Below are positions 6,309 through 40,628 of a DNA stretch of 64,000 nucleotides, one piece after another. The position numbers were made by a program, and so were the translations under genes. Each line of letters begins with the position of its first letter. Position 1 is the first letter of the stretch. Source of the stretch: Arenicella xantha (GTDB lineage Bacteria; Pseudomonadota; Gammaproteobacteria; Arenicellales; Arenicellaceae). Where the stretch lies: contig NZ_QNRT01000005.1 in NCBI RefSeq assembly GCF_003315245.1, forward strand, positions 186,001 to 250,000. Direction: 5' to 3'. The notes below the pieces were generated by a model. That model was not told the DNA's origin and did not search any database. It worked only from the letters and a program-made list of their open reading frames with translations.

Positions 6309-9047
6309 ATGGGCAAATCGTTAGTTATCGTCGAGTCACCAGCAAAGGCTAAAACGATCAACAAATATTTAGGTAGCGACTACATAGTTAAGTCCAGTGT
6401 TGGTCATATTCGAGATTTGCCAACCAGTGGTGGCGACAAAAAACCAATTGATGCCAAGGAGCGTGCGCGCCAAGCAGCAATTACGCGAAAGTTGTCACCA
6501 GAAGACAAAATCATCCACAAGCAAAAGAAAAGCAAGCAGCAGTTGATCAATCGAATGGGGGTGAATCCCGACAAAGATTGGGAGGCGCGCTACGAAATCT
6601 TGCCTGGTAAAGAGAAGGTGGTGGATGAATTAGTTAAGCTTGCCAAAGATGCTGACGTTATTTATCTCGCGACGGATATGGATCGTGAGGGAGAAGCAAT
6701 CGCATGGCATTTGCAAGAAGCCATCGGCGGCGACCCGTCACGTTATCGACGTGTGGTGTTTAACGAGATTACCAAGACGGCTATTCAAGCCGCATTTGAG
6801 AAGCCTGGCCCTGTTGATATGGCTAGAGTCAACGCTCAGCAGGCCAGACGATTTCTTGATCGCGTGGTGGGCTATATGGTGTCGCCACTATTGTGGGCTA
6901 AAATCGCGCGTGGCTTGTCAGCAGGCCGTGTTCAATCAGTCGCCTTGAGGTTGGTTGTGGAGCGCGAGCGCGAGATTCGGGCATTCATTCCAGAGGAATA
7001 CTGGGACTTATTTGCTGATCTGAAGACCGCCGGTAAAGATTCGGTCAATTTTGAGGTGAGAAAGCATCGCGGTGAGAATTTCAAGCCGTTGACTGAGGCG
7101 CAGACCTTAGCTGCTATTGATGAGTTAAAGGCGGCGGATTACCGTATTGCCGACATCAAAGAGAGGCCTACATCGACTAAGCCTACTGCGCCGTATATAA
7201 CGTCCACATTGCAACAAGCCGCAAGCACTCGGCTTGGGTTTGGTGTGAAAAAGACCATGATGTTGGCTCAGCGGCTCTATGAAGCCGGTTATATCACTTA
7301 TATGAGAACCGACTCGACCAATTTGAGTCAGGGCGCCGTTGCTCAGTGTCGTGACTACATTGCTGATAAATACGGTAAGAAATATTTGCCTGAGTCACCA
7401 ATTTCTTATGCGAGTAAAGAAGGCGCGCAGGACGCGCATGAGGCGATTCGCCCTTCGGATGTGTCAATACTGCCGACTCAGTTAAGTAATGTTGACCGTG
7501 ATGCCGAGCGCCTTTACACCTTGATTTGGCGGCAATTTTTGGCTTGTCAGATGACGCCAGCTAAGTTTATGAGCACCAGTGTGGTGGTTGAAGCTGGTGA
7601 CTATGAGTTACGCACACGTGGGCGTGTCATTTTGTTTGATGGCTATCAGAAGGTGCAGCCTCCAATGAGCGCCAAAGGCGACGATGATGCGGTATTGCCG
7701 CCGATGAAGGTCAATGAAGTGTTGGCTTTGCAGGCGCTAAACCCAACGCAGCATTTCACTAAGCCGCCAGCACGGTTTACCGAAGCGAGTTTGGTTAAGG
7801 AATTAGAGAAGCGTGGTATCGGTCGACCGTCTACTTACGCAGCGATTATTTCGACGATCCAAGACCGTGGCTATGTGCAAGTTGAAAAGCGTCGTTTTTA
7901 CGCACAAAAAATGGGCGATATTGTGACCGAGCGCTTGGTCGAGAGTTTTACTGAACTAATGGACTACGATTTTACCGCTAACATGGAAGATCGTTTGGAT
8001 GACGTAGCTAAAGGTCGACTGGAGTGGCGCGATTTACTTAATCGCTTTTATTCCGAGTTCTCAGAAACCTTGCTTAAGGCGCAGAATGACGATGACGGTG
8101 GCATGCGGCCCAATGAGCCGACTGAAACCGATATTGAATGCCCGACCTGTGGTCGGCCGATGCAGGTTCGCACCGGAACTACCGGGGTATTCCTTGGGTG
8201 TTCAGGTTATGTGTTGCCGCCGAAAGAGCGTTGCAAGTCCACTATGAACTTGGTGCCGGGTGATGAAGCCGTTAACGTTGATGAAGACGATGAAGCTGAA
8301 GCAAAGTTGCTTATCAAAAAGCATCATTGTGCAATTTGTCATTCGGCTATGGATAGTTATTTGCTTGATGAGTCTCGTAAGCTGCACATTTGTGGGAACA
8401 ATCCTGATTGTGCGGGCTTTGAGGTTGAGCAAGGTGTGTTCAAGATTAAGGGCTATGAAGGGCCGGTACTTGAATGCGATAAGTGTGGCAGCGACATGCA
8501 GTTAAAAAATGGTCGTTTTGGCAAGTATTTTGGTTGTACCAGCGAAGATTGTAAGAATACACGTAAGCTGCTTCGCAATGGTGAGGCAGCGCCGCCTAAG
8601 ATGGACCCAGTGTCGATGCCCGACTTGAAGTGCCTTAAGGTCGATGACCATTATGTGCTACGAGATGGTGCGTCCGGCTTGTTTCTAGCGGCGAGCGGGT
8701 TTCCTAAAAATCGTGAAACTAGAGCGCCTTTAGTGGCTGAAATTCTGCCATATAAGGATCAGATTGATAAAAAGTACACCTATTTATTCGATGCGCCTGT
8801 CGCGGATAAGGATGGTGTGCCGACGGTGATTCGCTACAGTCGTAAGACTAAGGAAATCTACGTTCAGTCAGAGGACGATGGTAAGGCGACTGGTTGGAAG
8901 GCTTTTTATGAGGGTGGCAAATGGGTCATCACTGATGGTAAGTCGGTGAAAAAGCCTAAAGCGAAGAAAAAAGCATCCAAGAAAAAGGCCAAGAAAAAAG
9001 TCACTAAGAAGAAGGCCAGCAAAAAGAAGGTTAGTAAAAAGCAGTAA
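6309..9047 (+). CDS. topA: DNA topoisomerase I
   Basis: Type IA topoisomerase relaxing negative supercoils. The 912 residues start with the Toprim domain ([18 protein letters not shown]; acidic triad in TDMDREGEA). The active-site tyrosine is Y331 in [14 protein letters not shown]. Three C-terminal zinc ribbons begin at about residues 611 (CPTCG), 674 (CAIC) and 723 (CDKCG). The last ~33 residues are a very Lys-rich tail of repeated KKA/KK units, likely DNA- or RNA polymerase-contacting as inferred from charge. The 207 bases upstream (6102-6308) contain no gene and no promoter I would defend. Confidence 0.97.
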
Positions 9048-38419: not shown

Positions 38420-40573
38420 CTAGCAGGACGCATTTTGATCTTGTATAAGCCGCAGTAAGTGCGCCGTGGCACGGGCATCGTTGAGTGCTCGGTGTGCGCC
38501 TACAAGGTCGATATCGAAGTGAGTGGTTAACGCGCCTAAGCTATATGACTTTAGGCCTGGAAACGCCTTGCGCGAATTTCTCACGGTGCAATATTTTGGT
38601 TTTCGAAACGATTGACCAATGGCCTCATACGCGGCTTTAATAAAGCCATAGTCAAAACCAACGTTATGCGCCACGAAAATGCAATCGCGCAGCTGGTCTC
38701 GCAATTGGTCGGCGATTTCGGCAAATACTGGCGCATTGGCGACCATGGCATCGTCTATGTGAGTCAAGCGGGTAATGTAGGCTGGAATCCGTCGCTGAGG
38801 ATTCACCAATGTCGACCATTCGCTAATGATGTTACCGCCACGAACCTGTACTACGGCAACTTCGGTAATCGCATTACCGCCTTTCATCGACCCAGTGGTC
38901 TCGATATCGACGACCGCATAAACTTGATCTGGGTTGGTGGACCAATGAACTTGGCTAATATCGACTCGATAGCCGGCTCGTCGTAGTCGGTTGATACTTA
39001 CTAGTTGGTTGGGACGTAGGCTATCTCCCGGCGCTTTAATTTCTTCAAAACGTAATTCGCTGTTTTCTACCACCAGCAAGTCGGGGTAGCCATCGCGGGC
39101 ATGTTGATAGTTCATTGCCATGCGTCTGAGTACCTGAGCGATCGCTGTTGGCGGGCTGTGTAGAACACATGGTTTTAGTAAGTCCAAAAGGTTGGCACGC
39201 CATCGAAAAATGCCATTTGGCTGGCCATAGTTAATGGTGGCGCAGCGAGCAATTGATTTAAGCATGCGCTGAGGGTCGTCAAAACCGAGTAATATCTGCT
39301 CGATGCGTGTCTCTAGAGATTGATAAAACTGCCCATTGCGTAATAGTGGCGGTAAGCGATCAAATTCACCGTAATTGATTTCTTGCTCGCCAAACAATAA
39401 CTCCCAAAAAGTCAGCGCGAATAAAGCCCGCCAACACTTGTTTTCGCTAAACTGAGCACTAATACCCTGCCGTTGATAGTGTTCAATAACGCCGTCTTCA
39501 ACGTCATTTATGTAGGCCTCGTCGAGCTGCAATGCTCGGGTCGGTTCTCGTACCAAATCGGTATAGACGCTGGTGCGCTTGCCCTGATATTTTCTGGCAT
39601 AAAAGTCTTCAATGAAAACTTGGCAGCTTGCGGGTAAATCCTTCTCACGAAGGGTCTCTAATTCCACTTTTAATGCGCTGCGGTCGCCTTGACGATGGGT
39701 TTCGCGAACCCATTTTTCGACGGCTTGTGGTTCATTAGACGTGCGCCACAACTGCAGTGCTCGGTCTGCATTTTGGCTTAGTAATTCATTGCCGACCTCT
39801 AGCAGTAGCTTGCTATGGGTTTGTTGTGCTGCAAACCCAACCGGGTGTTTGCTGAGTAAGTAGTCCGCAGCCGCTTCTTGTGTGGCTTGAGGGTCGGCTT
39901 GAAACGATCTCCGTAGTTGCTGCAGCTCGAATGCGCTATACGCGTCATCAGCCTGCTCAAAGCGAGCTACCGGTTTGCTATTACTTTTTCGTGTGCGTAA
40001 CACTCCAAGATCACGCATTGCAAACTTCTGAAAGCGATTGCGCAAATCCCCAAAAAATAGAAAGAAGATATAGTCTACAGTTTGGCTTTGTCGACGCACT
40101 ACGAAATTGTTTAGCAGGTCGGCATCAGTTAAATGGCTGGCGTCGAGTTGTTGTGTGCTGAATTCGACGACTTCCTGACGGCTTACCGATGACTTGACCG
40201 CATGTCCGTAAAGTCTGACTAGCGCCAGTAGCTCAGGCTTAGTTAGCGCAGTTGCTAAGTTCGGCCAATCTGAAGGCGTGGCCAATGCAAGAAATTCCTG
40301 CTCCAGTAGGGTATTGAGAGCGGAGCTAAGGGAGTCGATTTCAGGATAACTTAAGCTGGCGCGCTTAATGAATTTTGGCTTGCGTGCTAAACAACGGATT
40401 AACAGACATTGACTGTTTTCATCGAGTTCATTAAAACGCTGCAAATAGTCAAGATGATGTTTATCGAGTAGGTGCGAGCACTCTAACCGTACGAAATCAA
40501 ATAGCTCTCTGGCGTGCGACAAGTAGTACTTTTGTGGGAGGCTAGTGCTGGCAGTGCTTGGCATATCGGGCAT
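38420..40573 (-). CDS. FAN1-like VRR-NUC nuclease fused to DEDDh 3'-5' exonuclease
   Basis: 717 residues from the ATG at 40573; a longer frame to 40672 is rejected because a promoter-like sequence lies inside it. Residues ~1-450 resemble FAN1: an N-terminal helical part, a SAP-like LTKPELLALVRLYG, and TPR-like helices. The VRR-NUC nuclease follows with the PD-(D/E)xK residues in DGYPDLLVV (about D498) and FEEIKAPGDSL (about K513). A DnaQ-type exonuclease is then fused: VVDIETTG (D556, E558), FVAHNVGFDYGFI, and HRALNDARATAHLL (His/Asp). FAN1 resolves interstrand crosslinks and flaps; an added 3'-5' proofreading-type activity is inferred from the domain. Confidence 0.85.
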   Translation of the reverse strand: MPDMPSTASTSLPQKYYLSHARELFDFVRLECSHLLDKHHLDYLQRFNELDENSQCLLIRCLARKPKFIKRASLSYPEIDSLSSALNTLLEQEFLALATPSDWPNLATALTKPELLALVRLYGHAVKSSVSRQEVVEFSTQQLDASHLTDADLLNNFVVRRQSQTVDYIFFLFFGDLRNRFQKFAMRDLGVLRTRKSNSKPVARFEQADDAYSAFELQQLRRSFQADPQATQEAAADYLLSKHPVGFAAQQTHSKLLLEVGNELLSQNADRALQLWRTSNEPQAVEKWVRETHRQGDRSALKVELETLREKDLPASCQVFIEDFYARKYQGKRTSVYTDLVREPTRALQLDEAYINDVEDGVIEHYQRQGISAQFSENKCWRALFALTFWELLFGEQEINYGEFDRLPPLLRNGQFYQSLETRIEQILLGFDDPQRMLKSIARCATINYGQPNGIFRWRANLLDLLKPCVLHSPPTAIAQVLRRMAMNYQHARDGYPDLLVVENSELRFEEIKAPGDSLRPNQLVSINRLRRAGYRVDISQVHWSTNPDQVYAVVDIETTGSMKGGNAITEVAVVQVRGGNIISEWSTLVNPQRRIPAYITRLTHIDDAMVANAPVFAEIADQLRDQLRDCIFVAHNVGFDYGFIKAAYEAIGQSFRKPKYCTVRNSRKAFPGLKSYSLGALTTHFDIDLVGAHRALNDARATAHLLRLIQDQNASC

Positions 40574-40600
40574 CGGATTGGTTGATGCGAAGATACTATA

Positions 40601-40628
40601 ATTATATACAGTTAATTTCAATTGTAAG
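40601..40628 (-). promoter_or_regulatory. Candidate promoter for the FAN1/exonuclease gene
   Basis: On the minus strand, TATAAT (40606-40601) is preceded by CTTACA (40628-40623) at 16 bases spacing. It is 27 bases before the chosen ATG, and so supports that start over the longer frame. Confidence 0.5.

What the first reader, a model, noticed from the sequence alone, without database searches (positions are those of the whole stretch)
38420..40573. Single protein joining a FAN1-like VRR-NUC nuclease to a DEDDh 3'-5' exonuclease
FAN1-type bacterial nucleases that I know of end at the VRR-NUC domain. Here the frame runs on into a complete DnaQ-type exonuclease with DxE, AHN and HxxxxD motifs. 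Joining a structure-specific 5' flap/crosslink nuclease to a 3'-5' exonuclease in one chain would let one protein work on both strand polarities at a lesion. The PD-(D/E)xK and DEDDh residues are both present, so both halves could be active.
Basis: partly seen in the sequence, partly recalled or inferred. Interest (0 to 1): 0.62.

Follow-up and report, generated by a model that had tools for sequence, protein, structure and literature searches.

The report
SOS-linked FAN1 nuclease–exonuclease fusion
This bacterial gene joins a DNA-crosslink-repair nuclease of the FAN1 type to a second enzyme that chews DNA from the opposite end, both with intact active sites, and DNA-damage control sites next to the gene suggest one protein made on demand to repair badly damaged DNA.

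Summary
The fusion is real. Minus strand, 38420-40573, 717 aa: a FAN1-type nuclease (FAN1_HTH, VRR-NUC; aligns with PaFAN1 over 9-544) running straight into a DEDDh exonuclease (554-706). No artefact: it recurs in 13 of 18 genomes of the genus, a 14th copy cut by a contig end, in other Gammaproteobacteria, and on Pseudoalteromonas and Bradyrhizobium replicons. In 26 of 26 fusions both catalytic sets are invariant, and 11 residues separate W/Y544 from the first exonuclease aspartate. FAN1 halves form one clade. New here: LexA (SOS)-type boxes precede the gene in 25 of 28 gamma fusions (controls 14 of 129) and 7 of 7 alpha fusions (controls 2 of 66); the other three share a third palindrome with their second lexA. 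Most likely: a damage-inducible repair nuclease that cuts 5'-flap or crosslinked DNA and trims 3' ends from a fixed position; activity untested. Such boxes also precede 22 of 30 stand-alone FAN1 genes (3 of 10 in another set), so SOS control is not peculiar to the fusion. Paper searches found no description. New variant of a known kind.

The parts
38420..40573 (-). CDS of the FAN1-DEDDh fusion nuclease, 717 aa, ATG start
   Evidence: open frame without stops; homologous over full length in other genomes
40289..40528 (-). FAN1_HTH domain (residues 16-95)
   Evidence: Pfam PF21315, E 1.9e-17, 63.4 bits against cut-off 27
38942..39229 (-). VRR-NUC nuclease domain (residues 449-544) with D498, E511, K513; catalytic E377 lies upstream of it (codon 39443-39445)
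   Evidence: Pfam PF08774, E 1.8e-13; aligned to PaFAN1 4r89 over 9-544; the four residues invariant in 26 of 26 fusions
38915..38941 (-). junction (residues 545-553) between the two nucleases
   Evidence: 11 residues between W/Y544 and D556 in 26 of 26 fusions; [DN]P.Q.Y in 24 of 26
38456..38914 (-). DEDDh 3'-5' exonuclease domain (residues 554-706); D556, E558, D641, H694, D699
   Evidence: Pfam PF00929 RNase_T, E 3.3e-33; the five catalytic residues invariant in 26 of 26 fusions; this part of the model has pLDDT mostly above 90
40596..40611 (-). LexA (SOS) box-like palindrome CTGTATATAATTATAG, 22 bases lie between it and the ATG; one mismatch to CTGT-N8-ACAG
   Evidence: position; comparison across fusions; recA of the same genome carries CTGTATAAATTAACAG

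Best explanation
It is a DNA-damage-inducible, two-headed repair nuclease. Damage relieves LexA repression and the protein is made. Its FAN1 half (HTH, middle helical region, VRR-NUC) recognises a nicked or 5'-flap junction next to a blocked site, such as an interstrand crosslink, and cuts the 5'-ended strand in steps, as PaFAN1 and human FAN1 do. The DEDDh domain, held by a fixed-length junction at the end of VRR-NUC, removes nucleotides from the 3' end that lies at the same junction or is freed by the cuts. The lesion-bearing piece is thereby removed or the gap widened for recombination or synthesis. Shown: fusion, both catalytic sets, fixed junction, one FAN1-half clade, SOS-type boxes of the host's kind. 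Inferred: that LexA really binds, that both domains are active, that crosslinks are the main target, and that the two cuts are coordinated at one lesion.
For: Full-length FAN1 plus DEDDh by Pfam and by PaFAN1 alignment. Active-site residues of PaFAN1 (D507, E522, K524: passage in PMC9635880; E386 recalled) align with D498, E511, K513, E377. All nine catalytic residues are invariant in 26 of 26 fusions; identity to the window protein is 34-60% in the 24 compared. So both halves are under selection. Junction of constant length in 26 of 26. FAN1 halves of the 20 fusions put in the tree are one clade against 11 stand-alone FAN1, 100/100. SOS-like boxes: gamma 25 of 28 against 14 of 129 control upstream regions (at 30-90 bases: 24 of 28 against 3 of 129); alpha 7 of 7 against 2 of 66, plus two further alpha fusions with a perfect match, one of them 193 bases away; the remaining three gamma fusions carry GTTCTC-N6-GAGAAC, as do 3 of 3 of their second lexA genes. 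Precedents for DEDDh in crosslink repair: exonuclease-DinG of S. aureus, where both activities are needed for crosslink resistance (abstract of PMC12345164), whose exonuclease is the best PDB match here, and MrfB (abstract of PMC10889028).
Against: No activity, binding or expression has been measured. The window's own SOS box has one mismatch. SOS-type boxes also precede many stand-alone FAN1 genes (22 of 30; 3 of 10 by the same criterion in the first set, two perfect; two genes are in both sets), so SOS control says 'repair gene', not what the fusion adds. The AlphaFold model could not place VRR-NUC (block means of pLDDT 23-54 across 441-550, pTM 0.44), so whether the two sites can reach one junction is unknown. 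Four of 18 genomes of the genus have no FAN1_HTH match at all, so the gene is dispensable. The exonuclease halves alone do not form an exclusive clade: a long-branched viral sequence falls among them (8% of 200 bootstrap trees keep them as one side of a branch). PADLOC models match the exonuclease half (candidate system PDC-S48, 4.2e-47).
Confidence: 0.6

Rival explanations
1. The exonuclease is an independent end-cleaning activity tethered to FAN1 only so that both are made together; the two domains work on different DNA ends.
For: Similar DEDDh domains are fused to quite different partners: GIY-YIG-like (17 bacterial sequences labelled so by a loose motif in a script, and viral L113), DinG helicase and PolC. 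The module is promiscuous.
Against: A tether for co-expression should vary in length. The junction is exactly 11 residues in 26 of 26 fusions, with [DN]P.Q.Y in 24 of 26, which points to a fixed geometry.
Confidence: 0.25
2. It is a defence or anti-mobile-element nuclease rather than a repair enzyme.
For: Patchy distribution; presence on conjugative plasmids of Bradyrhizobium, one of them with a GASH (GTPase-associated system) gene and an AbiEii/AbiGii toxin gene annotated within 12 kb; a broken copy in G406; the exonuclease half matches PADLOC models, the candidate system PDC-S48 and a CRISPR-associated DEDDh.
Against: All four PADLOC matches cover the exonuclease half only, about 549-714, a domain shared with many repair proteins. 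No neighbour occurs in more than 8 of 27 loci. SOS-type boxes. FAN1 relatives are repair enzymes. Neighbours were not searched against PADLOC.
Confidence: 0.07
3. The exonuclease domain is structural: a 3'-end clamp that positions FAN1, with little or no catalysis.
For: FAN1-type enzymes work at nicked or flapped junctions where a 3' end is present (established knowledge); a 3'-end-binding domain could help placement.
Against: All five DEDDh catalytic residues are invariant in 26 of 26 fusions.
Confidence: 0.08

Closest known systems
PaFAN1 (Pseudomonas aeruginosa PA1865; PDB 4r89, 5y7g, 5z6w) and other stand-alone bacterial FAN1
   Same: PaFAN1 is co-linear over residues 9-544 with the PD-(D/E)xK residues; SOS-type box in front of 22 of 30 stand-alone gamma FAN1 genes read
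   Different: End at VRR-NUC; stand-alone FAN1 proteins of other gamma genomes are 22-26% identical to the window's (12 compared), and the 11 put in the tree fall outside the fusion clade (PaFAN1 itself was not in it)
Human FAN1
   Same: FAN1-type VRR-NUC, best stretch 356-542
   Different: Has an N-terminal UBZ domain (passage of PMC9635880) and no DEDDh domain (established knowledge)
Exonuclease-DinG of Staphylococcus aureus (SaDinG, PDB 8zef)
   Same: DEDDh domain fused to a second DNA-damage enzyme in one chain; best PDB match to the exonuclease half (5.8e-29); both activities needed for crosslink resistance (abstract)
   Different: Exonuclease is N-terminal and the partner is a helicase, not a nuclease
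DEDDh-GIY-YIG (PRK07883-like) proteins
   Same: Closest exonuclease domains found outside the fusions (up to 50.7% identity; neighbouring group); PRK07883 is the best NCBIfam match (4.9e-51, below its cut-off)
   Different: Partner is GIY-YIG-like and follows the exonuclease; no FAN1 part seen
MrfB of Bacillus subtilis
   Same: DEDDh 3'-5' exonuclease important for repair of mitomycin C damage (abstract)
   Different: Separate protein, encoded with helicase MrfA; not a nuclease fusion

Membership tests
FAN1 (KIAA1018 branch of VRR-NUC) | VRR-NUC domain with PD-(D/E)xK residues E, D, E, K | tested here: met
   PF08774 above cut-off; E377, D498, E511, K513 align with PaFAN1 and are invariant in 26 of 26
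FAN1 (KIAA1018 branch of VRR-NUC) | N-terminal FAN1 HTH and helical middle region before VRR-NUC | tested here: met
   PF21315 above cut-off; co-linear with PaFAN1 over 9-544; model mostly helical over 14-368, with low-confidence stretches at 65-75, 175-203 and 334-355
FAN1 (KIAA1018 branch of VRR-NUC) | helical insertion in VRR-NUC that keeps the protein monomeric (Pennell et al., PMC4103454, passages) | tested here: inconclusive
   Co-linear with PaFAN1 through the region without large gaps, but the model is too poor there to see it
[quoted passage not shown]
   needs purified protein
FAN1 (KIAA1018 branch of VRR-NUC) | chain ends at VRR-NUC | tested here: not met
   runs on into RNase_T 554-706; treated as a variant, since this is a common habit and not a definition
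DEDDh (DnaQ-like) 3'-5' exonucleases | five catalytic residues D, E, D, H, D in the three motifs | tested here: met
   D556, E558, D641, H694, D699 invariant in 26 of 26; RNase_T 3.3e-33
DEDDh (DnaQ-like) 3'-5' exonucleases | 3'-5' exonuclease activity | not testable with these tools
   needs purified protein
LexA (SOS) regulon | LexA operator of the host's type in the promoter | tested here: met
   gamma 25 of 28, alpha 7 of 7, third type 3 of 3 with the same palindrome at the second lexA; the window copy has one mismatch; gamma and alpha consensus are recalled
LexA (SOS) regulon | LexA binding and induction by DNA damage | not testable with these tools
   needs binding and expression assays
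Anti-phage defence systems (PADLOC) | match of the whole protein to a defence model | tested here: not met
   four matches, all to the exonuclease half only

The most novel reading that the evidence does not exclude
A previously unnamed SOS-controlled excision enzyme, found in at least two classes of Proteobacteria, that carries 5'-flap/5'-3' (FAN1) and 3'-5' (DEDDh) nucleases rigidly joined in one chain, so that a single polypeptide can cut out a crosslinked stretch from both sides.
Probability: 0.4. Interest if true: 0.75.

Novelty: new variant of a known kind. Interest (0 to 1): 0.58.

Why it matters
FAN1 matters for crosslink repair and, in people, for triplet-repeat expansion, while I know of little genetics on its bacterial relatives. 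A natural fusion that fixes a 3'-5' exonuclease at the end of FAN1's nuclease domain suggests what partner activity FAN1 needs, and offers one gene to delete and two residues to mutate. The SOS-type boxes in front of fused and many stand-alone FAN1 genes make a direct prediction (LexA control of bacterial FAN1). In P. [quoted passage not shown] whether PA1865 itself has such a box was not tested here.

Tried and rejected
Frameshift or assembly artefact: rejected, because the same full-length fusion occurs in many genomes and in named replicons. Operon or system partner: not found. In 27 loci no neighbour cluster occurs in more than 8; five clusters are shared between distant groups and by eye look like common transporters, a hydrolase and a LysR-type regulator (recalled, no family search). 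Phage origin: no phage record covered 80% of the protein (0 of 52 with a match), and the 51 viral loci matched it only from residue 465 onwards, most of them within the exonuclease (its scan used two exonuclease patterns). The best, L113, continues into a GIY-YIG-like part, and the ORFs read at L115 and L143 show no VRR-NUC by eye; for L133 and L149 the script printed other ORFs, so those two were not settled. Matches over 490-710 in G153 and G273 turned out to be long proteins with an exonuclease and no FAN1 part. Domain arrangement by AlphaFold: tried once with 15 rows; the exonuclease and much of the helical part are good, VRR-NUC is not. A script failed on a motif and was rerun corrected; the rerun left out two of 22 comparison sequences whose motif did not match (L031, L044). 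Distribution outside Proteobacteria was not mapped by genome search (one search returned an error). PHROGs and fold searches were not run.

Limits of the SOS-box count: the third palindrome was found after looking at the three genomes that lacked the usual box, so it is post hoc. Start sites of control ORFs were taken as the first M of each frame. The shuffles keep single-base content only. Sequences within a genus are not independent, so the Fisher values overstate the evidence. L039 was dropped from the stand-alone set for lack of upstream sequence.

Full report
OBSERVATION. The gene is on the minus strand, 38420-40573; ATG to stop gives 717 aa. Pfam finds FAN1_HTH at 16-95, VRR_NUC at 449-544 and RNase_T at 554-706, all above their cut-offs. 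Of the 25 NCBIfam matches shown (of 29), all lie in the exonuclease half; no equivalog model reaches its cut-off, and only the domain-level TIGR00573 (dnaq) is exceeded, 101.7 against 71.5 bits. Against the PDB the first 546 residues align with PaFAN1 (4r89) over 9-544 (E 3.7e-21), and the last part with the exonuclease of S. aureus DinG (8zef, 5.8e-29) and of PolC (2p1j). The window's genome has this one VRR-NUC match.

HOW WIDESPREAD. Genus: 13 of 18 genomes carry it full length, the window's included, and one more has a copy cut by a contig end; FAN1_HTH is found in the same 14 and in none of the other four. One named record of this set is an Arenicella MAG contig with the same length and cut as the G016 copy. 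Own order: 17 of 109 genomes pass, the same 14 and three of family f9, one of which has the gene in two pieces at contig ends. Order of G406: 8 of 148, one of them (G406) broken. Phylum sample: 17 of 398 pass the threshold and 11 of these are fusions; the other six match in one half only. Class of G645: 3 of 385, the centre included. Plasmid collection: 5 records with at least 80% coverage, three Pseudoalteromonas and two Bradyrhizobium, out of 188 with any match. Phages: none of 52 with a match. In the phylum sample FAN1_HTH matches 56 places in 55 genomes; 12 are fusion genes and 44 lie in frames of 539-687 aa, three of which were read. I call G645, G710, G753 and G852 alphaproteobacterial because they are of another class of the phylum and their fusions are 65-89% identical to the named Bradyrhizobium ones and each other, against about 35% to the window's.

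CONSERVATION. In an alignment of 26 fusions the nine catalytic residues of both nucleases never vary; identity to the window protein is 34-60% in the 24 compared. The stretch from W/Y544 to D556 holds 11 residues in 26 of 26 and reads [DN]P.Q.Y in 24 of 26. This is not how a loose tether behaves.

ORIGIN. In a tree of 20 of the FAN1 halves of fusions and 11 stand-alone FAN1 proteins the fusions are one side of one branch, 100/100. In a tree of exonuclease domains the fusions group with one long-branched viral sequence, next to DEDDh-GIY-YIG-like proteins; only 8% of bootstrap trees keep the fusions apart from all others. One fusion event followed by descent, loss and some transfer fits best; the exonuclease tree alone does not prove it. 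None of the 11 stand-alone loci showed an exonuclease ORF of 150 aa or more in the flank held (10, L089; one flank of L039 is short).

SOS BOXES. In the 220 bases before conserved residue 13, 25 of 28 gammaproteobacterial fusions have CTGT-N8-ACAG with at most one mismatch (8 perfect), against 14 of 129 upstream regions of other ORFs in gamma loci (1 perfect); within 30-90 bases it is 24 of 28 against 3 of 129 (per-gene list). All 7 alphaproteobacterial fusions examined have a perfect GAAC-N7-GAAC, against 2 of 66 controls with either orientation of that box. Two further fusions of that class also have a perfect match, one as GTTC-N7-GTTC at 193 bases. The three gamma fusions without the usual box, all of family f9, share GTTCTC-N6-GAGAAC, which also stands in front of the second lexA gene in 3 of 3 of those genomes. 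In the window the box is CTGTATATAATTATAG at 40596-40611, one mismatch; recA of the same genome has CTGTATAAATTAACAG and its lexA a one-mismatch site. So the operator type changes with the host while the gene keeps one. Against a special role: stand-alone FAN1 genes have such a box in 3 of 10 (two perfect) and 22 of 30 (two genes are in both sets), so SOS control is widespread in gammaproteobacterial FAN1 and may be older than the fusion. Of 17 related DEDDh genes read (16 labelled GIY-YIG-like), two have a one-mismatch site.

NEIGHBOURS. In 27 loci no neighbour cluster occurs in more than 8, and those 8 are all of the window's genus; five clusters are shared between distant groups. In the two f9 loci with flank the gene directly upstream reads like a uracil-DNA glycosylase (recalled signature). 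A PolX-like gene lies in 3 of 7 alpha loci (cluster 17; annotated PolX in one, where a Ku gene is also near). In one Bradyrhizobium plasmid the gene follows a SOS response-associated peptidase gene, with GASH and AbiEii/AbiGii genes within 12 kb.

DEFENCE CHECK. PADLOC gives four matches at 0.01, all to the exonuclease half (PDC-S48 4.2e-47 and 3.2e-36, CRISPR-associated DEDDh 4.4e-37, an exonuclease effector 6.2e-05). They say that this exonuclease type also occurs in candidate defence proteins; none covers the FAN1 half.

MECHANISM. From these facts I take it as a damage-inducible repair enzyme. FAN1-type enzymes cut 5' flaps a few bases past the junction and act 5'-3' (passages of PMC9635880); DEDDh enzymes remove 3' ends. 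Exonuclease-DinG needs both of its activities for crosslink resistance (abstract), and MrfB is a DEDDh exonuclease in mitomycin C repair (abstract). A joint action on both ends at a crosslink is the natural reading, but it is inference. The AlphaFold model is good for the exonuclease and much of the helical part and poor for VRR-NUC, so geometry is open.

LITERATURE. Full-text searches for the fusion or for bacterial FAN1 and for LexA with VRR-NUC, FAN1 or Bradyrhizobium exonucleases gave no paper that, from the listing or passages seen, describes the fusion or LexA control of bacterial FAN1. Passages were read in PMC4103454, PMC9635880, PMC12721341 and PMC12796719; abstracts in PMC10889028 and PMC12345164; the rest only as search listings. 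The library lacks most subscription papers, and InterPro was not available, so prior listing of the architecture cannot be excluded.

Noticed in passing
L174-L203 (stand-alone FAN1 loci): 22 of 30 stand-alone gammaproteobacterial FAN1 genes also have a LexA-box-like site within the 220 bases upstream (Fisher against 14 of 129 controls 1.8e-11). This may explain the UV and ciprofloxacin induction of PA1865 that PMC12796719 leaves open; PA1865 itself was not examined.
   Followed up: partly
L063, about 7252-8540: In G406 the fusion gene is interrupted after about residue 107 by an element with two ORFs that look like an IS3-type transposase (recalled; no family search made).
   Followed up: partly
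L171-L173 and L076, L077, L079: Genomes of family f9 in the same order have a second lexA whose upstream palindrome GTTCTC-N6-GAGAAC also precedes the fusion gene: a third operator type.
   Followed up: partly
L076 and L077: Directly upstream of the fusion, on the same strand, lies what reads like a uracil-DNA glycosylase gene (recalled signature).
   Followed up: no
L087, L103, L105: A PolX-like gene lies near the fusion in 3 of 7 alphaproteobacterial loci.
   Followed up: no
L018 (G011): A genome of the same genus that lacks the fusion carries a DEDDh-GIY-YIG-like protein in a 529-aa frame.
   Followed up: no
L103 and L104 (G645): One genome holds two copies of the fusion at distant places, 88.7% identical, each with its own SOS-type box.
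   Followed up: no
L020, L061, L062: Long proteins with a DEDDh domain at the C-terminal end behind what reads like a sensor or kinase-like region; not searched against families.
   Followed up: no
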